Shown here: positions 8,379 through 34,062 of the stretch, one piece after another
Numbering within the stretch: position 1 is the first letter of the stretch
Layout: each line of letters starts with the position of its first letter
DNA from: an uncultured Lachnospiraceae bacterium
Lineage (GTDB): Bacteria > Bacillota_A > Clostridia > Lachnospirales > Lachnospiraceae
Assembly (NCBI GenBank): GCA_905207905.1
Contig: CAJLNC010000022.1
Span: 1 to 34,062, forward strand
Direction: 5' to 3'
DNA: 34,062 nucleotides
Translations under genes and position numbers: made by a program
The notes under the pieces: generated by a model
What the model saw: the letters and a program-made list of their open reading frames with translations, nothing else
What the model was told of the DNA's origin: nothing
Database searches by the model: none

Positions 8379-9033
8379 ACTGAAGCAGAAGACTAGCGCA
8401 GAGCTGGTGGATGAGTTGGTGCAGCTGGATCGGCTGCGTTTGCAGACCGCCAGGAACATATCCAAATATCAGGCGGAGCTGCAGGCCCGGGGAATCAGCA
8501 TTATGGAAGACCGCAACAAGCAGTACACAAGATTTTATGGAAGTATGGGAGCTGCGGCATCCGTTACAGACCGGCAGAGCCTGGATATCTTGAATCCGGA
8601 TCGGTTGAAGCTGTGCGTATCCGAAGGGGTCTGGAAGAAGAACGTTACAGTGACGATGGAAACAAAGTATAAATGCAGCGCTAATTTTGAGCGTATGCTG
8701 AAAGCTCTTTTTACGGATGACTACACATTTGAAATGGATCTGGAGGAGTTTTTAGACAGCCAGATGCACATCCTGCCGGATACGAAGCAGAAGAAGCTGC
8801 TGCTGAAGAAGTTAAGCGGAGACTATGAAAAGGATCGGAAGAACCTGGCGGCTATATTTGATACGGAATGCGACTGGGATGTGGAACTGTATTACATCCA
8901 TAAGATCAAGAACGCAGAGCTGATCCGTGCGTTTTTGCCGGATGATATGCTGGATGCAACGATCCGAGAGCTGAAGAAGTGCGTGATTGTAGATAGTAAA
9001 ACAGCAATTACGCTGGATTATAAGGAGGATTGA
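8371..9033 (+). CDS. Hypothetical protein, 220 aa
   Basis: AAAGGAGG stands before the ATG, which lies inside the previous gene's end. The N-terminal 45 residues look like a coiled coil ('ELVDELVQLDRLRLQTARNI'). The rest mixes acidic and aromatic residues ('FTDDYTFEMDLEEFLDSQMH') with no catalytic motif I recognise. It sits between a DNA-binding protein and the endolysin. Function unknown. Confidence 0.65.
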   Translation: MDELKQKTSAELVDELVQLDRLRLQTARNISKYQAELQARGISIMEDRNKQYTRFYGSMGAAASVTDRQSLDILNPDRLKLCVSEGVWKKNVTVTMETKYKCSANFERMLKALFTDDYTFEMDLEEFLDSQMHILPDTKQKKLLLKKLSGDYEKDRKNLAAIFDTECDWDVELYYIHKIKNAELIRAFLPDDMLDATIRELKKCVIVDSKTAITLDYKED

Positions 9034-9038
9034 TAGAC

Positions 9039-10766
9039 ATGGCAAAGAAAAAGTTGTTGATTATTGCAGGTCACGGAGAAGGCGATCCGGGAGCCTGCAG
9101 CGTGTGGGGACAGGAAGCAGATTATACAAGAGAACTGGCAACGATGGTGAAGAAATCCATTGGCAGCAAGATGTCCGTGACCATGTATGACCAGAAAAAG
9201 AACTGTTATGCGCAGAGCAAGCGCGGCAATGTGCCGGAATATGCAAAGTATGACATGACCTTAGAGATCCATTTTAATGCGAAAGCAAAGAAGGATCCGT
9301 ATGGGGACAGACGGTTTACCGGAGTCGGCGGTTACATCCATCCGGACAACGCCGGACGGAAGGTGGCACAGGCGATCATTGCCCGGGTGGTGGCGATCGG
9401 ATTTAAAGAGTGGCTGCTGGATACCAGCACGGGGCTTCTGAACCTGAACAATGCGCAGCGCCAAGGAGCAAAGTATTTCCTTCTGGAGACGGCGTTTATT
9501 GATGATGGGGATGACATGAATTTCTATAAAGAAAATCAGGAAGCGTTTGCCAAAGCGATTGCGCAGGGCATCATGGACGGACTGGGAATGGCTTCTGCTG
9601 CCGGAGATGTGCCACAGAAAGAATATTGGAGGGTACGGAAAGCCTGGGAGGATACAGCAAGCCAAAAATATGCCATGGATAGCAAAGAGGCTGCCATTAA
9701 GGTCTGCCCGACTGGTTACAGTGTGTTTGATCCATCCGGCAAGTGTGTTTACACCAAGGAAGCATACGGCACACAGGCCCGATCCTTTGAGGGGTGTGAG
9801 GAATCAGAGTATATTGAAGCAGTTGGTGCGATGTATACAGAAGATGAGCGTAAAAACGGTATCCTTGCCTGCGTATCCATTGCCCAGTCCATACTGGAGA
9901 GCGGCTATGGGCAGACGGATCTGGCGCAGATCGGCAACAACATGCATGGCATGAAATGCACATTGTCCGGGAATACCTGGGCAGGCACAACATGGAATGG
10001 CAGCAGTTTCTATGAAAAACTATCACCAGAGGTGGAGAATGGCCAGGAAGTGATGCGCAGATCTAAGTTCCGCTGCTATGAATGTATCGAGGAGTCCATT
10101 GCCGATCATGCTGCCTATCTTTTAAATGCAGCAAACGGGAACAAGCGCAGGTTTGAAGGGATACAGGGAGAGCAGGATTATCGGAAGGCGATCCAGATCA
10201 TTAAAGCAGGTGGGTACGCAACGGATCCGGAATATGTCAATAAGATCTGCAGCATCATTGAACGCTGGGATCTGACACGGTTTAATGCAGGGAACAGCGA
10301 TCCAGAGGAACAGCCGGAAGTACCAGAGCAAAAGCCGGATACCCCGGAGTTTGGAGATCAGGAGGAGGCTGGACAGGTGCTGTATGGTATCTTTACGGAT
10401 GCGGATATCCTGTCGATCCTGGCTGAGCCGCAGAAGGCTGGAAAGGTGGTCGGGTACATTCAGGAACCAGTGGGAAAAAAGAAAGAGTACCACATCGTAG
10501 AAGAAAAGAACGGGTACGGAAAGCTGTTAAGCGGAGCTGGCTGGGTGGATCTGGCGCATGTGAAGAAATGGCTGTATGCAGCCAAGACAACCTGTGACGT
10601 ATTGAACATCCGCAAAAAGGCATCCATTGACTCGCCGATTGTTGGAACAATCAGCGAGCCGGAGGGCAGGAAGGTGCCGTACCATATTGACAGGGAAAAG
10701 GACGGGTTTGGTCATCTGGTGAGCGGAGCTGGCTGGGTGAGCATTAATTATATTAAAAAGGTGTGA
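9039..10766 (+). CDS. Three-module endolysin: amidase, glucosaminidase, SH3-like repeats
   Basis: 575 aa from the ATG with AGGAGG ten bases upstream. Residues 1-185 are a zinc-dependent N-acetylmuramoyl-L-alanine amidase (Amidase_3 type): likely ligands His12, Glu26 and His78, and catalytic Glu150. Residues about 195-240 form a SPOR-like wall-binding segment ('GYSVFDPSGKCVY'). Residues about 250-400 look like a glucosaminidase ('QSILESGYGQTDLA', Glu catalytic). The last 130 residues are two SH3-like repeats ('CDVLNIRKKASIDSPIVGTI'). It lyses the peptidoglycan at the end of the lytic cycle by cutting two bond types. No signal peptide, so it needs a holin for export. Confidence 0.9.
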   Translation: MAKKKLLIIAGHGEGDPGACSVWGQEADYTRELATMVKKSIGSKMSVTMYDQKKNCYAQSKRGNVPEYAKYDMTLEIHFNAKAKKDPYGDRRFTGVGGYIHPDNAGRKVAQAIIARVVAIGFKEWLLDTSTGLLNLNNAQRQGAKYFLLETAFIDDGDDMNFYKENQEAFAKAIAQGIMDGLGMASAAGDVPQKEYWRVRKAWEDTASQKYAMDSKEAAIKVCPTGYSVFDPSGKCVYTKEAYGTQARSFEGCEESEYIEAVGAMYTEDERKNGILACVSIAQSILESGYGQTDLAQIGNNMHGMKCTLSGNTWAGTTWNGSSFYEKLSPEVENGQEVMRRSKFRCYECIEESIADHAAYLLNAANGNKRRFEGIQGEQDYRKAIQIIKAGGYATDPEYVNKICSIIERWDLTRFNAGNSDPEEQPEVPEQKPDTPEFGDQEEAGQVLYGIFTDADILSILAEPQKAGKVVGYIQEPVGKKKEYHIVEEKNGYGKLLSGAGWVDLAHVKKWLYAAKTTCDVLNIRKKASIDSPIVGTISEPEGRKVPYHIDREKDGFGHLVSGAGWVSINYIKKV

Positions 10767-28406: not shown

Positions 28407-28828
28407 GACTTGCAGGAATTGATGATGTAGATATCCGGTTGGATAAATACGGGCAGCTCATGCCTGACAGCAATGGAGAATGTATGCTGTGTGGCGGTAT
28501 GCGCTGCTGGATGCAGGATATCTGGCTGGAAATGCTGACAGATGAAGGTGAATTGATCTGGGAAGACCAGGAAGGGATGCAGGCGTATGGATATAGCCTG
28601 ACAGATTATCTGAACGCGGAGCAAGATGAGGATTTCAAAGATGAAATCAGTGCGCAGATTATCGGAAAAATGACCAAACGGGAATATATTGACGATGGAT
28701 CAATAAGCCTGACGATGGAAGCCTCAACAGACAGCATGTGGGTTGCACATGTCCAGTTTCGGGAGTCCGATGGTCAGAATGTCAATATTGATATTCATTC
28801 GGATGGGAAGGAGATAGACGTGACATGA
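28403..28828 (+). CDS. Baseplate wedge protein (gp46/W, gp25-like)
   Basis: 141 aa; its ATG overlaps the previous stop (ATGA). 'DIRLDKYGQLMPDSNGECML' then 'QDIWLEMLTDEGELIWEDQE' (about 35-54) match Mu gp46-type wedge proteins, where the mid region is 'Q-x-I-x-LR-L-x-T-x-G'. Joins the sheath to the baseplate. Overlaps the J-like gene by four bases. Confidence 0.75.
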   Translation: MRLAGIDDVDIRLDKYGQLMPDSNGECMLCGGMRCWMQDIWLEMLTDEGELIWEDQEGMQAYGYSLTDYLNAEQDEDFKDEISAQIIGKMTKREYIDDGSISLTMEASTDSMWVAHVQFRESDGQNVNIDIHSDGKEIDVT

Positions 28829-29958
28829 TACCGGATAACATTATGGAAAAAATCATTCATGTGCCGGATGAAGCAGAGTACATGGAAGAATTAGAAGAAA
28901 AACTTGTAGCAGAAGGATTTGTGATCACGAATTTTTCCAAGGGCGGCGTGTTCTATACCATATTGCGGATTGTGGTTCACGGGCTGATCCAGCTAAAGCA
29001 GCTAGGGGTTCAGATCGTTAATTCAGCGTTTATGACACATTGCCCGGAAGATTGGGTGGAGATCCGTGCTGCGGACTACGCCAAGTATCGCAAAGAGGGC
29101 ATACACACAAAGGGTTATGTAACGGTGTACAGGCGCGATTACAGTTATCCAGTAAAAATCAAAAAGGGGCATCCATTTATAACGTCCCGCAATGCAGATG
29201 GGGCATATTACACATATTACGCAGTCGAAGATATCGTGCTGCAGGAAGGTGTCAGTGAATGCAAAGTAATTGTTGAAGCGGAGCAGCCAGGGGCTGCCTA
29301 CAATGTGGAGCCGGGGGTAATCTGTGAAACGCTTGTATATATTGACGGCTATGACCATGTAAGAAATGAGGAAGGCTGGATCATAGAAAGTGGAGCGGAA
29401 ATCGAAGAAATTGAGTCCCTGCGTCAACGTTGCTTAAACAGCCGGGCAGAAAATGCACGCTTGAATCCAGACAGAAAGCTGAAGAGTATTGTGGAATCCA
29501 TAAGCGGTGTGGTAACAGCAGACATTGACAGTCAGGCACCGCGGGGTGAAGGCACGGTGGATATTATCATCACCGGTTCTGAAGGTACTGCAGATGAGAC
29601 GCTGATTCAAAAGGTGGAAGAAGCAATCAAAGAGATGGAAGGCAGTTATGGCAATTACTTGGTTAAGCCTGCTAAATCCATTAAACAAAACTTCACATTG
29701 ACAGTATACGTGGAACATGGGGTCAGCTTGGTGGGCTATGAGGATCAGGTACGCACTGCGGTGAGCGATCTTATGAAGGTGAGTAAACGGAAAGAGTTAA
29801 ACACGCTCTATCGGGATGAGATCATTGGCAAATTGATTTCTAACATTCAGGGATATAAAAAAACAGACATAACAGTACCAGCGGCAGATGTTATTGCGGA
29901 AAAGGGAAACGTTATTGTAGCAGGAGATATACAGGTCACTGTGAAAAATATCAGTTAA
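28825..29958 (+). CDS. Baseplate J-like protein (Mu gp47-like)
   Basis: 377 aa. 'ILRIVVHGLIQLKQLGVQIV', 'EIRAADYAKYRKEGIHTKGY', 'EQPGAAYNVEPGVICETLVY' (about 155-174) and 'SISGVVTADIDSQAPRGEGT' are standard Baseplate_J motifs. Forms the wedge that reaches from hub to fibre. ATG overlaps the previous stop. Confidence 0.93.
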   Translation: MIPDNIMEKIIHVPDEAEYMEELEEKLVAEGFVITNFSKGGVFYTILRIVVHGLIQLKQLGVQIVNSAFMTHCPEDWVEIRAADYAKYRKEGIHTKGYVTVYRRDYSYPVKIKKGHPFITSRNADGAYYTYYAVEDIVLQEGVSECKVIVEAEQPGAAYNVEPGVICETLVYIDGYDHVRNEEGWIIESGAEIEEIESLRQRCLNSRAENARLNPDRKLKSIVESISGVVTADIDSQAPRGEGTVDIIITGSEGTADETLIQKVEEAIKEMEGSYGNYLVKPAKSIKQNFTLTVYVEHGVSLVGYEDQVRTAVSDLMKVSKRKELNTLYRDEIIGKLISNIQGYKKTDITVPAADVIAEKGNVIVAGDIQVTVKNIS

Positions 29959-29969
29959 GGAGGACAGAC

Positions 29970-30551
29970 ATGTATGAAAAATTTAGAGATTACTTATATT
30001 ATCTTCTTCCTACACCATTTAAGCGGCTGAAAAAAATAAAAAATCAGTGGTATATATTTTTCAAGGTGATTGGAGATGAATATGACAAAGTGCAGGCAGA
30101 GCTAGAGCGTGCGTTGGAAGAGACGTCAGTGGCAACCTGTAGTGTGGATATGCTGCCATATTATGCACAGGATCGGGGAATGTATCGATATACGGAGGAG
30201 GACGATGAGACGTTTCGCAGTCGGATCGCAATGCAGGATGAGGTAGAGGCTCTTGGTGGTACGAAAGCCGGAATCATTCTTGCAGCAAAGACATTGGGAT
30301 ATGACGATGTGGAACATCTGTGGTATTCGGATATTGGTTACCCGGATAAGTGGTCACAGTTTCTGTTGCGGGTAAGTGTGTCTGATGATCAGGAACATCC
30401 AGTCACTATTGAGATTCTTGTCCGTGAAGTGCGCAAGGCAAAAGACAGCACATCGCTGGATAACTATTGTTTGTGCAATGTTCTGCACAGTGGAGCAAAA
30501 ATAGGGGCAACGATATCGGTTGTAAATTATATTGGCTTAGGAGATATATAA
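29970..30551 (+). CDS. Tail protein YmfQ/DUF2313-like (Mu gp48-like)
   Basis: 193 aa, following the J-like gene by 11 bases with AAGGAGG in front. 'YYLLPTPFKRLKKIKNQWYI' and 'EVEALGGTKAGIILAAKTLG' (about 91-110). Equivalent to gp48/gpI, which links the wedge to the tail fibre. The family match is by order and the mid-region 'R-x-R-I-x-x-Q/M'-like pattern. Confidence 0.78.
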   Translation: MYEKFRDYLYYLLPTPFKRLKKIKNQWYIFFKVIGDEYDKVQAELERALEETSVATCSVDMLPYYAQDRGMYRYTEEDDETFRSRIAMQDEVEALGGTKAGIILAAKTLGYDDVEHLWYSDIGYPDKWSQFLLRVSVSDDQEHPVTIEILVREVRKAKDSTSLDNYCLCNVLHSGAKIGATISVVNYIGLGDI

Positions 30552-30553
30552 AT

Positions 30554-31444
30554 ATGATGACCTATACGGAAACGGGTCTTTCCCTGATTGCAGATGCGGT
30601 AGCATCTGGGAAACAGGTGAAAATCACCAGAATAGAATTAATAGCTGATCCGGAACGATCTGAAGGAGAACTAACCCATAATGCGGAAATTGCATCGGTG
30701 GAAAAGTATAATAATACAACGATAGACATTAAGGTGGTAACAGATAATTACAATTTTAAAAAAGACTATTTTTTTAATCGGGTGAATGTATATGCGACAG
30801 GAGCAGATGGACAGGAAGTATTGTTTTGTTTCCAGCATACTAAGACTTGTCCGATCTACATACCGGCATACGATGGTAGGACAATTCAAAATGAAATTAA
30901 AATAAGATTGAACGTTACTTCGGCCGATGTGGTGGATATAGTAAATGACGGCGTATATGTACTGCGGACGGACTTTGAAAAAGAGCTGGCTAAGAAGATC
31001 AATATAGCAGACATTGTGCAGGATGCCGATAAAGGTGAAGCAGACAAGGTAATATCTGCGGCCGTGGCTAAGACCTTACAGGATCAGATTGACCAGAAGA
31101 TTGACATAAAAAATATAGTGCAGAATACAGTGACAGCGGCTACAGATAAAGTGGTGTCTGCGGCTGTAGCGAAAGCTCTTCAAGATCAAATTACTGAGCT
31201 AAACACGAATACAATCCGGAAGAAATCTGGAAGTCCAGTCTGCCAAATTGGGACTGATCAATATTTTAATGCTGTATCGATGTACGATCAAAACGGCGCG
31301 TGGAAAAATTATTTATTGTCGCAGAAAAATGATGCAAAAATGTTTGTGGCACAATACCAGATCACACCCCGTGGTGACGGCAAGCATGAACTACATTTTT
31401 ATGATGCGGACGGTGGCTGGATATGTAAATTCACATCGGATTAA
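30554..31444 (+). CDS. Tail fibre, currently expressed form with C-terminus A
   Basis: 296 aa from ATGATG at 30554. Residues 1-130 are a tail-collar-like baseplate-binding domain ('TYTETGLSLIADAVASGKQV', 'YIPAYDGRTIQNEIKIRLNV'). Residues about 148-215 hold two tandem 34-residue repeats (DNA 30995-31096 and 31097-31198; 'VVSAAVAKALQDQI'-type), probably a trimeric shaft. Asn-Thr-Asn at 31202-31210 is encoded by the recombination repeat. The last 78 residues ('TIRKKSGSPV...FTSD', C-terminus A) should be the receptor-binding tip. The variable end is switched by inversion of 31201-31728. Role as adhesin inferred from position and architecture. Confidence 0.85.
   Translation: MMTYTETGLSLIADAVASGKQVKITRIELIADPERSEGELTHNAEIASVEKYNNTTIDIKVVTDNYNFKKDYFFNRVNVYATGADGQEVLFCFQHTKTCPIYIPAYDGRTIQNEIKIRLNVTSADVVDIVNDGVYVLRTDFEKELAKKINIADIVQDADKGEADKVISAAVAKTLQDQIDQKIDIKNIVQNTVTAATDKVVSAAVAKALQDQITELNTNTIRKKSGSPVCQIGTDQYFNAVSMYDQNGAWKNYLLSQKNDAKMFVAQYQITPRGDGKHELHFYDADGGWICKFTSD
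30995..31198 (+). repeat. Two tandem 102-bp repeats in the fibre shaft
   Basis: The first unit begins KINIADIVQDADKGEADKVI and the second KIDIKNIVQNTVTAATDKVV; both continue with nearly the same SAAVAKxLQDQI. Period is exactly 102 bases (34 codons). The recombination site starts one codon after the second unit. Confidence 0.85.
31201..31211 (+). repeat. Fibre recombination site S1 (direct)
   Basis: AAACACGAATA inside the expressed fibre gene, followed by C as at S3 (13 bases AAACACGAATACA shared with S3). Codons read AAC-ACG-AAT, Asn-Thr-Asn. It is the left boundary of the first invertible segment. Confidence 0.85.
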
Positions 31445-31727
31445 CCGGATAACAAAAACAGGCGTCTATTCGTCCTGTTCCGGTATATCCCGGGTAATAG
31501 GCAATTACTGTTCCAGCCATTTTCATGTACGCAGTATAGTTCCCGACTGTAAGATAAAATTCTTCCAGCGGGGCCGGGACGCCGGATATGATTATATCCC
31601 CCTGTGCCAGTGCGCTGGATGGTGTAGCTTCCAGTGTTACGAAACACATTTTCCCGACTATTCGGTAGGATGCGGCTCCAGATTTCATCTTCGGGCCCAG
31701 CGCAGCACCGCCTCCAATATTCGTGTT
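31431..31727 (-). CDS. Silent tail fibre C-terminus B
   Basis: Open frame on the minus strand from the S2 repeat (codons AAC-ACG-AAT at 31727-31719) to TGA at 31433-31431: Asn-Thr-Asn then 'IGGGAALGPKMKSGAASYRI' and on to 'CFCYPVNPM', 98 residues. No ribosome binding site or sensible start lies upstream, so it can be translated only after inversion. The frame at Asn-Thr-Asn is the same as in the expressed gene. Unlike C-terminus A in sequence apart from a shared 'KSG' after the joint. Convergent overlap with A is 14 bases. Confidence 0.87.
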   Translation of the reverse strand, partial: NTNIGGGAALGPKMKSGAASYRIVGKMCFVTLEATPSSALAQGDIIISGVPAPLEEFYLTVGNYTAYMKMAGTVIAYYPGYTGTGRIDACFCYPVNPM

Positions 31728-31728
31728 T
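31718..31728 (-). repeat. Fibre recombination site S2 (inverted)
   Basis: AAACACGAATA on the minus strand; extended identity with S3 is 14 bases, ACAAAACACGAATA (31731-31718). It is the right boundary of the first invertible segment. Confidence 0.85.
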
Positions 31729-31754
31729 TGTATGTAACTCGTTAATTATTTTTA

Positions 31755-31773
31755 GGCCGGTACGGTACTGGCC
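31755..31773. other. Hairpin just outside S2
   Basis: GGCCGGTA and TACTGGCC pair over 8 bp (one G-U) around CGG. No T-run follows on either strand. It lies between the invertible segment and the start of the next gene's ribosome binding site and could protect mRNA or insulate the downstream gene. Confidence 0.45.
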
Positions 31774-31787
31774 AGAAAGGAAAAGAA

Positions 31788-32192
31788 ATGGAAAGAATTA
31801 AATTGGGATCCGGTAAAGAACTGAATCTAATTGTCTGCGGCATCATGGCTGATGCACAGACTGTAACTATGAAATTTGTTCCGGGCAATGATAGTCTGGA
31901 CACATTAAATACACTGTTGATGGACACTGCACAGACAGAAAAAATGACGCTACTGTCTACCGGAAGCGAAGAGCTGGCTATATACAACGGATATACGCAG
32001 CTACAGTCGATTGGGCAGGAACTGGATGCTGTGATCGGCTACACGCAGGATGAAATGCAGACACCGATCACGGGTAAGTTGGTTACAGCAATACTGCGGA
32101 AGCCGGATTGTACTGAACAGAGATTAGATGCTGCGGAGGCACAGCTGACAGATATGCAGCTGGCACTGTGCGAAGTCTATGAAATGCTTTGA
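31788..32192 (+). CDS. Unrecognised tail-region protein, 134 aa
   Basis: AAGGAAAAG lies before the ATG. N-terminal half is beta-like ('ERIKLGSGKELNLIVCGIMA', 'GSEELAIYNGYTQLQSIGQE'), followed by 'DAAEAQLTDMQLALCEVYEM', a helical end. It lies outside the invertible segment, before the CD1375-like genes, a position taken in Clostridia phages by tail-associated proteins (XkdX region). A fibre chaperone or baseplate accessory role is possible; no evidence decides it. Confidence 0.65.
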   Translation: MERIKLGSGKELNLIVCGIMADAQTVTMKFVPGNDSLDTLNTLLMDTAQTEKMTLLSTGSEELAIYNGYTQLQSIGQELDAVIGYTQDEMQTPITGKLVTAILRKPDCTEQRLDAAEAQLTDMQLALCEVYEML

Positions 32193-32205
32193 GGAGGTGC
32201 AGAAT

Positions 32206-32313
32206 ATGGAAAAAATTTATGCAGCGTTGATCAAAAAAGAGCTGAAAACAATCGAAGAGGTACCAGAAAGAATTAGGAGAGAAGTAAGAACTATACTAGG
32301 CGGTGATAACTGA
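32206..32313 (+). CDS. CD1375-like small protein, 35 aa (first copy)
   Basis: GAGGAGGTGC precedes the ATG. The sequence 'YAALIKKELKTIEEVPERIR' closely resembles the second copy and the CD1375-type small phage proteins ('VVYATLIIKGKK-x-F/I-x-x-VP-x-x-R-x-V-x-x-x-L'). Their function is unknown. The TGA stop overlaps ATG of a possible extension of the next frame. Too short for most gene callers. Confidence 0.7.
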   Translation: MEKIYAALIKKELKTIEEVPERIRREVRTILGGDN

Positions 32314-32363
32314 TGTTGCGTCAGTTAATCATAAGATTCTTACTCAGGAAGGGGGTGGAAGAT

Positions 32364-32489
32364 ATGGCAGTAGTATATGCGACACTTATCATTAAAGGCA
32401 AAAAGAACATTGAAGATGTTCCACCGCGCATTCGTGACGAGGTGAAGCAGGTTCTGATTGACCTCGATCTCGAAACACTTGCGATTTAA
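32364..32489 (+). CDS. CD1375-like small protein, 41 aa (second copy)
   Basis: ATG 32364 follows AGGAAGGGGGTG; a longer frame from ATG 32313 is possible but lacks such a site. 'VVYATLIIKGKKNIEDVPPR' is the family core. Paralogous to the gene 50 bases upstream: both share Y-A-x-LI-x-K and VP-x-RIR-x-EV. Marks the end of the tail operon. Confidence 0.75.
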   Translation: MAVVYATLIIKGKKNIEDVPPRIRDEVKQVLIDLDLETLAI

Positions 32490-32501
32490 ACATGCCAAAA
32501 G

Positions 32502-32521
32502 CTCCGGAGTGTGCCCCGGAG
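32502..32521. terminator. Hairpin between tail operon and recombinase gene
   Basis: CTCCGG / CCGGAG (6 bp) with an 8-base loop. It is flanked by AAAA on the left, giving TTTT after the stem on the minus strand. It therefore best fits a weak terminator of the leftward recombinase gene and may also stop the tail transcript. Confidence 0.55.
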
Positions 32522-32544
32522 TAAAACAGTGGGTACATAATAGC

Positions 32545-33543
32545 TTAGGCGGCGTATCGGCGGTATGCCGCCTGTACATTTTGCTGTGATATATAACAGT
32601 AAACCTGTGTAGTCTTGAGGTCAGCGTGACCGAGTATTGCTGCAACATCCTGTATATTTGCGCCGCGGTCAAGTAAATTTGTTGCAAGCGTCCTGCGGTA
32701 TCGGTGCGGGTGGACATTCTCAACACCGGCGCGTTTACCAATTGCTTTTAATACCGTTTCGATTCCAGCTTTTGAGAGCCGCCGGTGCGGAGACTTTATA
32801 CTTGCAAAAAGGCATGGATCGACATCAGTCCGGCTGTTCAGATAGTCTGTCAAGTGCATAAGAGCCACGGGGGTAAGGTAGATGGTACGTTCTTTGTTTC
32901 CTTTTCCTAACACTACGGCATCTTTGGTCAAAAAGTTGATGTCAGCCCTGTTTAGACGTACTACCTCACTTACACGGCAGCCTGATGCATATAAAAATTC
33001 TATTAAAGCAAGATCACGAAGCGATGTACAAGCTTGCTTAAGACGCTCCATTTCAGGGGCGGAATATGGTTTTTTAATAACCTTAGTATATTTGATTTGT
33101 GCAAGAGCTGTGCATGGATTACGACCAATCCAGCCCTCTGCAACCAACCAATTAAAAAAGCTGGAAAAGCAGCGCCGTATACCATCGAGGGTTCGATTGC
33201 TTACATGACGTTGACGTTTGTATTCAGCTAGATAATAACGGAGGTCATAGGTCGTAATCTCGTGAAGTGGGCGGCAAAGCGTATGAATCATCATATAGCA
33301 GACATCTCGGTATCGTCTGAGCGTTTCTTCGGATTTGCCCTCTACGCGTTTGGTGGCGATAAATTTTAATAGAATGGAATCCGGTGTAGTATCTATGGCA
33401 GTTATTTCTGTAGTGCGTACTTGTATTTCATAAGAATTAAGTTGCAGGGTAAGAGCGTTTTGAACTGCTTGGAGTTGCTCATCATCCAGTAAAGCACGAA
33501 CGGAATCAGACACAGCATTGATGATGGTAATTCGTAAATCCAT
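32545..33543 (-). CDS. Tyrosine recombinase, candidate tail fibre invertase
   Basis: 332 aa. SAM-like N-terminal domain around residues 52-145 ('ILLKFIATKRVEGKSEETLR', 'YYLAEYKRQRHVSNRTLDGI'). Catalytic domain: Arg in 'YASGCRVSEVVRL', Lys in 'GKGNKERTIYLT', His-x-x-Arg in 'HPHRYRRTLATNLL', His in 'LGHADLKTTQVYCYI' with Tyr of QVY as nucleophile. All six expected residues are present. It resembles Xer/phage-type enzymes. Mu-like phages integrate by transposase, so a second integrase is not needed for integration; its place between two fibre cassette pairs points to site-specific inversion at AAACACGAATA. AAGGAGG precedes the start. An integrase from a nested element is the alternative, but no such element is visible. 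Confidence 0.93.
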   Translation of the reverse strand: MDLRITIINAVSDSVRALLDDEQLQAVQNALTLQLNSYEIQVRTTEITAIDTTPDSILLKFIATKRVEGKSEETLRRYRDVCYMMIHTLCRPLHEITTYDLRYYLAEYKRQRHVSNRTLDGIRRCFSSFFNWLVAEGWIGRNPCTALAQIKYTKVIKKPYSAPEMERLKQACTSLRDLALIEFLYASGCRVSEVVRLNRADINFLTKDAVVLGKGNKERTIYLTPVALMHLTDYLNSRTDVDPCLFASIKSPHRRLSKAGIETVLKAIGKRAGVENVHPHRYRRTLATNLLDRGANIQDVAAILGHADLKTTQVYCYISQQNVQAAYRRYAA

Positions 33544-33638
33544 AGAAAATCCTCCTTGTTTTTTTGATTATTTTAAGGGATTTCCAGGTAAAAGTAACGG
33601 ATTGTAAAAGAAAAAGCAACAAAACGTGTCATGCGACA

Positions 33639-33649
33639 AAACACGAATA
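33639..33649 (+). repeat. Fibre recombination site S3 (direct)
   Basis: AAACACGAATA with upstream match to S2 (ACAAAACACGAATA, 33636-33649) and downstream match to S1 (TACA). Opens cassette C in the Asn-Thr-Asn frame. It lies 96 bases beyond the recombinase start. Confidence 0.85.
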
Positions 33650-33927
33650 CATTGGTCACAGGCGTATTTTCAGAATGTTGGTTCCCGGGATTTGCAATTG
33701 ACGGAATGGGATTTTCTATAATAATCCCCAAGCATTATAAATCGCACACATTAACCGTATCGTCTGCGAAAATATTCGTTCCGGCATCCAAAACATGGGT
33801 GTCTACAACAGTATCATCCATTACAGATCTGGTGAATTGCTGGCGGGTCATTCTGACAACAGATGTGTCCATGAAATTGACCTCCGGCAGTGCCTATATT
33901 GCGAATTTAGGTGGGCAGATAAAATGA
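33640..33927 (+). CDS. Silent tail fibre C-terminus C
   Basis: From Asn-Thr-Asn at 33640 the frame reads 'TLVTGVFSECWFPGFAIDGM' and on to 'SAYIANLGGQIK', ending with TGA at 33925-33927; 95 residues in all. An ATG at 33631 exists but has no ribosome binding site, and the frame there is not otherwise special. It looks like a beta-rich fibre tip. Translated only if recombination joins it to the fibre N-terminus. Confidence 0.8.
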   Translation, partial: NTNTLVTGVFSECWFPGFAIDGMGFSIIIPKHYKSHTLTVSSAKIFVPASKTWVSTTVSSITDLVNCWRVILTTDVSMKLTSGSAYIANLGGQIK

Positions 33928-34062
33928 TTATTTCCATTTAGACCACCCGTTATCAACATCGTAGAAACGGTTGGACATCCCCAACGCACCAACAGCAATT
34001 TGGGCAAATCTGCCTGAGGAACCCATTGTAAAAACGATAACCCAGTACCCGCACTTACTACT
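33928..34062 (-). CDS. Silent tail fibre C-terminus D (partial)
   Basis: Minus-strand frame open from the window edge to TAA at 33930-33928: 'SSKCGYWVIVFTMGSSGRFA' to 'FYDVDNGWSKWK', 44 residues visible. Its stop directly abuts the stop of cassette C, so C and D form a second back-to-back pair. The 'Y/F-YD-x-D-x-GW' ending is also seen in C-terminus A ('HFYDADGGW'), supporting a shared fibre-tip family. The matching site (S4) should lie past the window in inverted orientation. Confidence 0.78.
   Translation of the reverse strand, partial: SSKCGYWVIVFTMGSSGRFAQIAVGALGMSNRFYDVDNGWSKWK

What the first reader, a model, noticed from the sequence alone, without database searches (positions are those of the whole stretch)
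31201..34062. Tyrosine-recombinase tail fibre shufflon in a Mu-like phage
Three copies of AAACACGAATA (31201, 31718 inverted, 33639) each lead, in the same Asn-Thr-Asn reading frame, into a different C-terminus (A, B, C). A fourth (D) runs off the window. Only A is joined to a promoter, ribosome binding site and N-terminus. A tyrosine recombinase gene sits between the two pairs. Mu and P1 switch fibres with serine recombinases (Gin, Cin) and two alternatives; here the enzyme class differs and the repertoire is at least four. Tyrosine-recombinase shufflons are known from R64 pili (Rci). I know of none described for a Mu-like Firmicute phage, but could not search.
Basis: partly seen in the sequence, partly recalled or inferred. 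Interest (0 to 1): 0.94.

Follow-up and report, generated by a model that had tools for sequence, protein, structure and literature searches.

The report
Phage fibre-tip shufflon traded between prophages
In this Mu-like phage, likely one of gut Lachnospiraceae bacteria, a single tail-fibre stem gene sits beside four alternative tip-coding segments; public sequences show the same stem joined to three of these tips, and the tyrosine-recombinase gene lying between the segment pairs likely flips them, which would let the phage change what it binds.

Summary
AAACACGAATA is at 31201(+), 31718(-) and 33639(+), each in the Asn-Thr-Asn frame into a different open tail; a partial fourth tail (D) enters at the right edge. 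Shuffling is visible in databases: the window's fibre stem (216 aa, 99-100% identical) occurs joined to A (P0125), C (P0126, tip identical) and D (P0128, 44/44 residues visible here); B was not seen. The crossover maps to AAACACGAA. Two relatives 99.3% identical over 2568 bp diverge after that 9-mer's last base; two fibre-like loci of one genome carry one segment inverted (98.8%). The layout is two-sided: convergent pairs A/B and C/D around the recombinase; 12 of 49 related loci show all four sites, 0 of 56 control placements do. New, as far as ten searches of open papers show: a recombinase close to HsdS invertases and far from Rin and Rci; the paired, centred layout in a Mu-like phage; and, in one Parablautia genome, cassette pairs shared between prophage loci of different tail type, the shared blocks ending at the sites. 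That this recombinase acts, and that binding changes, is inferred.

The parts
30554..31200 (+). constant N-terminal stem of the tail fibre (216 residues before the Asn-Thr junction)
   Evidence: P0125 starts MMTY; PHROG tail-fibre families phrog_7037 8.8e-10 and phrog_19961 5e-9
31201..31211 (+). site S1; crossover core AAACACGAA 31201-31209
   Evidence: crossover limits from P0126 and P0128 and from L003/L004
31202..31444 (+). tip cassette A (joined to the stem in the window)
   Evidence: P0125
31431..31727 (-). tip cassette B, convergent with A; the two frames overlap at their stops, so they can only move as one pair
31718..31728 (-). site S2 (core 31720-31728)
31788..32192 (+). 134-aa gene of the core segment, conserved in the close relatives
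   Evidence: 69-82% in L004-L007; phrog_12931, unknown function
32206..32313 (+). small ORF of 35 aa (XkdX-like by eye, recalled; no Pfam match)
32364..32489 (+). small ORF of 41 aa (XkdX-like by eye, recalled; no Pfam match)
32545..33543 (-). tyrosine recombinase, likely the shufflon invertase; 332 aa; R190, K217, H280, R283, H306 and Y315 invariant in an alignment of 20 sequences (catalytic roles assigned from recall)
33639..33649 (+). site S3 (core 33639-33647)
33640..33927 (+). tip cassette C
   Evidence: identical tip on the same stem in P0126
33928..34062 (-). tip cassette D, 3' part only (44 codons and stop); its site lies beyond the window
   Evidence: P0128
2882..5011 (+). Mu-type transposase (marks the phage as Mu-like)
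   Evidence: an 84% identical copy lies in G001 contig C2, about 30 kb from the shufflon there
28825..29958 (+). baseplate J-like gene
29970..30551 (+). Tail_P2_I / Mu gp48-like gene directly before the fibre
   Evidence: Tail_P2_I above its cut-off, gp48 below

Best explanation
The locus is a two-sided tail-fibre shufflon: a fixed fibre stem is joined at a 9-bp site to one of four alternative tip cassettes carried as two convergent pairs (A/B, C/D), and the tyrosine recombinase encoded between the pairs likely makes the swaps by inverting DNA between oppositely oriented sites, which would change what the phage binds. Shown: the three sites in the window, the frames, the pairs without an internal site, the same stem with tips A, C and D in public proteins, junctions that fall at AAACACGAA, and an inverted segment between two related loci of one genome. 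If only inversion between opposed sites is allowed, a layout with four alternating sites gives 16 arrangements and brings each tip to the stem in at most two steps. Inferred: a fourth site beyond the edge, that this recombinase is the enzyme, that one tip is made at a time, that the tips bind receptors. Also inferred: pairs move between phage copies or co-resident prophages when the two recombining sites lie on different molecules, which would explain the pair blocks shared in the Parablautia genome.
For: Same stem, different tips: P0125 (A), P0126/P0127 (C and a 95% allele of it), P0128 (D), stems 99-100% identical, tips A, C and D unrelated. P0126 keeps the stem's Leu codon before the core and P0128 has Lys where A has Asn after it, which puts the crossover inside AAACACGAA. 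L003 and L004 are 99.26% identical for 2568 bp up to the last base of the 9-mer, then carry different cassettes. L004 shows the start of one cassette after both its S1 and its S3 left flank (the second copy is at the contig end). L081/L082, two loci of one genome: S3-S4 segment inverted at 98.8% with the outer flanks in place. L006: relatives of all four of its cassettes (100, 94, 64 and 52% identical) occur on stems 98.7-100% identical to its own. Layout + - [recombinase] + - in 12 of 49 loci, 0 of 56 control placements. Fold model of P0126: stem domain 1-122, low-confidence linker and helix to 218, beta domain from 224 on with 10-residue blocks at pLDDT 78-93; the crossover (about residue 217-219) lies at the domain border; viral library matches are mostly tail-collar fibres, best E 6.7e-11, TM about 0.35. 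Precedent that a shuffled tip decides infection: phage FR-phi, one of three isoforms competent (PMC13418256, passages).
Against: No reads were available; isoforms come from separate records, so switching within one clone of this strain is not shown. Cassette B was not seen on a stem. No experiment links this recombinase to the sites; a host enzyme could act. The recombinase points against the stem in 4 of 4 loci of the window's own clade with a visible stem (window, L004, L005, L006), whereas free S1xS4 or S2xS3 inversion should randomise it; over all 16 loci it is 7 against and 9 with the stem (2 of the 16 with a weak stem call). No PDB fold match at E <= 0.001. Of 10 shuffled genes from relatives, 3 have a Pfam domain above its cut-off (two of these tail or baseplate domains), 2 a fibre repeat below it, 5 none, so for half of them 'fibre' rests on anatomy. 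The contigs of P0126-P0128 could not be read, only the proteins.
Confidence: 0.9

Rival explanations
1. The stem and tips are swapped slowly between phages by homologous or illegitimate recombination (ordinary tail-fibre mosaicism), and the recombinase is an unrelated integrase remnant.
For: Tail-fibre mosaicism is common (recalled); isoforms come from different records; a diverged allele of cassette C sits on a diverged stem (P0132, 64%); some S2/S4 outer flanks are 85-92% alike over about 65 bp between loci.
Against: Breakpoints fall at one 9-bp core again and again; the 682-bp block shared by L005 and L051 has no alignable flank at either end; sites lie in opposed pairs on both sides of the recombinase in 12 of 49 loci and 0 of 56 controls; stems 99-100% identical carry unrelated tips; the unjoined frames B and C are open; an inverted segment is seen.
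Confidence: 0.04
2. The shufflon is real but another recombinase (a host Xer-type enzyme or one of another prophage) does the work, and the local gene is a bystander.
For: A recombinase supplied in trans was proposed for a second bifidophage inversion locus (PMC6109161, section 8 read). G001 has three related recombinases in one genome.
Against: The arrays are centred on this gene (12 of 49 against 0 of 56 placements elsewhere; the scan sought pairs on both sides of it, so the centring is a search condition and only the control is independent). Candidate catalytic residues are invariant among 20 sequences. Its relatives also sit beside HsdS genes, another shuffled gene.
Confidence: 0.06
3. Only the A/B and C/D pairs flip locally; the C/D pair reaches the stem by exchange between phage genome copies rather than by inversion of the whole array.
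For: Recombinase orientation relative to the stem is constant in 4 of 4 loci of the window's clade; whole pairs are shared between prophage loci in G001; Mu-like phages replicate to many copies (recalled).
Against: By the layout of relatives S1 and S4 are in inverted orientation, so inversion between them needs nothing new; the sample is four loci, and across wider relatives both orientations occur.
Confidence: 0.3

Closest known systems
Rin shufflon of Bifidobacterium prophages (PMC6109161; section 8 and passages read) and of Eggerthella lenta clade 1 prophages (PMC8778435; passages read)
   Same: Phage receptor-binding protein with constant N-terminus and variable C-termini, short asymmetric sites (11 bp and 8 bp), tyrosine recombinase, alternative arrangements seen (Bifidobacterium).
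   Different: Rin gene at one end of tandem Rv genes; here the recombinase is between two convergent pairs. Rin site TTCCCTAACCC is absent from the window even with 1 mismatch. Recombinases align over only 50 residues (44%, with the 291-aa ORF of L093 taken as Rin). Rin prophages carry separate tyrosine integrases (paper); this phage has a Mu transposase.
HsdS (type I restriction specificity) inversion loci of Bacillota, e.g. the L. salivarius plasmid locus L097; PsrA of S. pneumoniae (PMC7096588, search listing only)
   Same: Recombinase 41% identical over 98% of length; neighbouring clade in the tree; recombinase between partial copies of the shuffled gene.
   Different: The shuffled gene is a phage fibre, not HsdS; no restriction family among the window genes scanned.
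FR-phi of Enterobacter, tail-fibre shufflon with three tips (PMC13418256, passages read)
   Same: Stem with alternative C-terminal tips, mixture seen in reads, tip decides infection.
   Different: The paper names gin as the recombinase (serine type); three tips.
R64 plasmid PilV shufflon (Rci)
   Same: Tyrosine recombinase, several inverted sites, constant N-terminus with alternative C-termini of a surface tip protein (recalled).
   Different: Rci aligns over 63 residues at 22%; no pilus family among the window genes scanned.
Mu Gin, P1 Cin, p15B Min inversion
   Same: Tail-fibre phase variation in a Mu-like or P1-like phage.
   Different: Those enzymes are serine recombinases (PMC6109161, section 8); here a tyrosine recombinase, and four tips rather than the two of Gin and Cin (number recalled).

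Membership tests
Phage RBP shufflon with tyrosine recombinase (Rin type, in working) | constant fibre N-terminus and several alternative C-termini, each led by the same short site in frame | tested here: met
   the site of D was not in the window
Phage RBP shufflon with tyrosine recombinase (Rin type, in working) | alternative arrangements actually occur | tested here: met
   (same stem with A, C, D); inverted segment L081/L082; not in one clone
Phage RBP shufflon with tyrosine recombinase (Rin type, in working) | tyrosine recombinase encoded at the locus | tested here: met
Phage RBP shufflon with tyrosine recombinase (Rin type, in working) | the recombinase catalyses the inversions | not testable with these tools
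   needs removal of the gene or an in vitro assay
Rin family proper | recombinase homologous to Rin over its length, and the rix site | tested here: not met
   50 aligned residues with L093's ORF, identified as Rin by the published site and position, its host not shown; no rix in the window
R64 Rci/PilV shufflon | Rci-like recombinase and PilV pilus tip | tested here: not met
   63 residues at 22%; no pilus family in the genes scanned
HsdS-invertase recombinase lineage (enzyme only) | full-length homology to recombinases beside hsdS | tested here: met
   (41% over 98%); neighbouring clade, not nested (root unsure)
HsdS shufflon (system) | shuffled gene is HsdS (PF01420) | tested here: not met
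   no PF01420 in the fibre or cassettes; tail fibre
Mu-like transposable phage | Mu transposase, Mu portal, Mu I protease and gpT, B-type ATPase | tested here: met
   (ATPase matches AAA_22 and TniB)
Gin/Cin/Min inversion | serine recombinase at the fibre locus | tested here: not met
   the recombinase gene at the locus is of the tyrosine type; the whole window was not scanned for serine recombinases

The most novel reading that the evidence does not exclude
Some gut Lachnospiraceae carry a shared economy of phage fibre tips: prophages with different tail machinery use one 9-bp site and HsdS-invertase-type recombinases to flip, and to trade with each other inside one lysogen, two-sided cassette pairs, so the tip repertoire of a phage is set by its cohabitants and not only by its own genome. 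In Parablautia sp. Marseille-Q6255 the siphovirus-like prophage locus L051 holds one pair in common with the Mu-like prophage L005 and the other with the loci L007 and L108.
Probability: 0.5. Interest if true: 0.87.

Novelty: new variant of a known kind. Interest (0 to 1): 0.74.

Why it matters
It extends tyrosine-recombinase fibre switching, described so far for phages of Actinobacteria in the papers found here, to Lachnospiraceae and to a Mu-like phage. Recombinase relatives reach E <= 1e-90 in 44 of 397 Lachnospiraceae genomes drawn (mostly the five best candidates per genome scored; HsdS and fibre loci both included). The enzyme lineage is the neighbour of the one beside HsdS restriction genes, so one tool appears to serve attack (fibres) and defence (restriction). 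If cassette pairs are traded between co-resident prophages, binding repertoires would spread faster than phage genomes, and what a prophage binds could not be read from one arrangement. Contigs end inside cassettes (L003, L007, L108), so short-read genomes will under-report such systems.

Tried and rejected
Window genome: none held, so the missing site and the host could not be read. Named phages: no match for the fibre in 50,697 phage records, none for the 4-kb locus at DNA level; recombinase relatives there are all under 60% identical (628 records), the 20 listed 28-42%. Chance repeat: rejected. Decayed remains of another phage: rejected, C and D occur on this stem. Solved folds: no hit at E <= 0.001; in the viral library one hit covers the tip alone, an uncharacterised 91-residue ORF (A0A8S5M204, 45%, 1.0 A), perhaps an orphan cassette. 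Literature: ten searches of open-licence PMC papers, judged by titles and abstract starts; none listed a Lachnospiraceae or Mu-like phage with a tyrosine-recombinase fibre shufflon; two of them gave 0 papers. Passages read in PMC3055811, PMC8042965, PMC8987985, PMC11868660, PMC5903667 and PMC13418256: none reports it (PMC5903667 notes prophage tail-fibre inversions in 4 species of Proteobacteria; PMC13418256 a gin shufflon). PMC6906374, PMC12282274, PMC7096588, PMC4948785: listing only. Subscription journals and preprints are not covered. Rooting the recombinase tree on Rci and Rin: branches of length 10, so no direction between HsdS and fibre use was concluded. The 'fib' label in the tree was set by me from array anatomy (12 four-site loci plus window, L004, L007, L051, L008), not from domains.
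Full report
CHECK OF THE OBSERVATION. With one mismatch allowed, shuffles give 0.56 matches on average and 1 of 100 reached three; for the exact 9-mer core AAACACGAA the window has 3, shuffles 0.25 on average, 0 of 100 reached three. Each copy opens in the Asn-Thr-Asn frame into a different tail. A is fused to a long upstream frame, the fibre stem; B and C are not. The A and B frames converge and overlap at their stops (31431-31444), and C and D meet at 33927/33928, so no site can lie inside a pair: A/B and C/D are two-sided units. D is cut by the window edge; its visible 44 codons equal the end of P0128.

CONTEXT. The phage is Mu-like: Mu transposase and portal, an AAA/TniB-like ATPase, Mu F, Mu I protease, gpT. 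The stem follows baseplate J and a gp48-like gene and matches PHROG tail-fibre families. Between the pairs lie a 134-aa gene, two small ORFs and the tyrosine recombinase.

SHUFFLING OF THIS PHAGE'S FIBRE. A search of about 5.8 billion proteins with the fibre gave 24 hits. P0125 is the window's form. P0126 and P0127 have a 99% identical stem with tip C or an allele of it; in P0126 the tip is 95/95 identical to the window's C. P0128 has a 100% identical stem with tip D. So three of the four tips have been seen on this stem, one of them the window's own; B has not. P0126 keeps the stem's own Leu codon before the core, and P0128 reads Lys straight after the core where A reads Asn, so the exchange lies within AAACACGAA (31201-31209). 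The tool shows no source for P0125 and P0128, so P0128 may come from the strain or sample of the window; that would not weaken the point.

SHUFFLING IN RELATIVES. Of 40 fibre proteins from two searches, 32 could be cut at a junction; they fall into 16 groups at 95% stem identity to the first member; 7 groups have two or more members (23 proteins), and in 7 of 7 the members carry two or more unrelated tips (the P0131 and P0132 tips are 35% alike, P0126 and P0127 are alleles, P0133 is cut short). For L006, a complete four-site array, relatives of all four of its cassettes (100, 94, 64 and 52% identical) are found on stems 98.7-100% identical to its own. L003 and L004 share 99.26% over 2568 bp, ending at the last base of the 9-mer. 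In L004 the first 54 nt of one cassette follow both the S1 and the S3 left flank, the second time at the contig end. L081 and L082, two loci of genome G048 with another site (ATAGTGATTTAG), hold the S3-S4 segment in opposite orientation at 98.8% over 563 columns while the outer flanks stay in place. This is DNA evidence of inversion in this class; that these two loci are phage fibres rests on weak domain evidence (a fibre repeat below cut-off in L082, none in L081).

THE CLASS. With an alignment of 20 recombinases, 44 of 397 Lachnospiraceae genomes have a relative at E <= 1e-90, at 53 places. I examined 42 of these places, the window and six viral or MAG loci, 49 in all. Of 49, 12 show the complete + - [recombinase] + - array with in-frame tails, 10 a three-site version (4 of these 10 are HsdS loci), 27 neither; 0 of 56 placements away from the recombinase show either. 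The site sequence differs between lineages. Of 49, 17 hold HsdS homologues (Pfam Methylase_S in 9 of 10 proteins tested), and none of these 17 is among the 12. In the tree the HsdS recombinases form one clade (21 rows, 3 unlabelled, support 96/100), the fibre-type ones fall in the other (28 rows, 11 unlabelled, 93/91, not starred); one row (L053) lies outside both, and the root is unsure because Rci and Rin sit on very long branches. A recombinase from an L. salivarius hsdS locus is 41% identical over 98%, against 50 aligned residues for Rin and 63 for Rci.

CASSETTE PAIRS SHARED BETWEEN PROPHAGE LOCI. Parablautia sp. Marseille-Q6255 (G001) has three such recombinases. The L005 prophage is a relative of the window's phage (late genes 67-87%; Mu transposase 84% identical about 30 kb away on the same contig). 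L051 has a recombinase 60% identical to the window's, a different stem, and an endopeptidase tail protein (Prophage_tail), that is, a siphovirus-like tail. Yet L051 5498-6179 equals L005 7253-7934 with 1 mismatch in 682, the block ending at or within 6 bp of the site cores; elsewhere the two loci align only at 66% in the recombinase and at 85% over a 67-bp site flank. L051's second pair matches the ends of two contigs that break inside it: L007 9633-9759 (127/127) and the stem-bearing L108 1-213 (99.5%, 1 mismatch). Both cassette pairs of L051 therefore recur, cut at the sites, in other loci of the same genome. The single mismatches argue for real copies rather than one copy placed twice by the assembler. 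In this genome the exact 12-mer ACAAAACACGAA occurs 10 times (8 in these three arrays, one at L108, one at L109), its backward control 3 times. That L007 and L108 belong to one prophage is inferred; the tail type of that prophage is not known. Whether trade happened in this strain by recombinase action in trans, or earlier in other hosts, is open.

HOW IT LIKELY WORKS. With opposed sites S1> <S2 S3> <S4, inversion between opposed sites alone reaches 16 arrangements and puts A (0 steps), B or D (1 step) or C (2 steps) on the stem (a label permutation). Deletion between direct repeats (S1/S3, S2/S4) would remove the core; intact arrays suggest that it is avoided or selected against. The recombinase points against the stem in 4 of 4 loci of the window's clade with a visible stem, while over all 16 loci it is 7 against and 9 with. 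Free inversion of the whole array does not predict the constancy in the clade; rare outer inversion or exchange between genome copies would explain it. The model of P0126 places a well-predicted beta domain (strands from 224 to 310) right after the crossover and a low-confidence helix (203-218) right before it, so each swap would exchange one whole domain. Binding to receptors is inferred from position, from tail-fibre relatives, from the Gp10_C and Gp53-like tip domains of the corresponding genes in L059 and L062 (5 of the 10 genes tested had no domain) and from the FR-phi precedent, where only one of three shuffled tips allowed infection (PMC13418256, passages).

KNOWN OR NEW. Phage tyrosine-recombinase RBP shufflons are known: Rin (PMC6109161; [quoted passage not shown] section 8 read) and the Eggerthella case (PMC8778435, passages). 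The published rix site recovered four IMG/VR stretches, of which L093 carries a recombinase ORF beside four rix copies. This system works like Rin but fails the tests of enzyme homology and site, and its layout differs. Filed as a new variant of a known kind. The part that may exceed that label is the sharing of cassette pairs between unlike prophages.

Noticed in passing
L061, L063, L065, L066, L069-L074, L076-L079, L085, L087, L088: Loci with HsdS homologues beside recombinases of the same family, several with alternating short repeats: candidate HsdS shufflons in Lachnospiraceae.
   Followed up: partly
L051:5498-6179 and L005:7253-7934; L051:3032-3635, L007:9633-9759, L108:1-213: Near-identical cassette pairs in different prophage loci of one Parablautia genome, cut at the recombination sites.
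   Followed up: yes
L109:3908-5135: A further site-bearing place in the same genome (contig C20) with one cassette and 80% similarity to the distal flank of L005; the recombinase search of that genome gave no match on this contig.
   Followed up: no
L051:4791-5822: Next to the shuffled fibre, between the pairs, lies a protein with carbohydrate-binding modules (CBM_5_12).
   Followed up: no
window 32206-32313 and 32364-32489: Two small related ORFs in tandem in the core segment that look like XkdX (recalled motif); no Pfam match.
   Followed up: partly
window 9030-10766: A lysin with both an amidase and a glucosaminidase domain encoded between the transposition and the head genes.
   Followed up: no
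L003:6645-6711, L007:9633-9759, L108:1-210: Contigs of two assemblies end about 60 to 200 bases inside a cassette, a sign of unresolved alternatives or repeats.
   Followed up: partly
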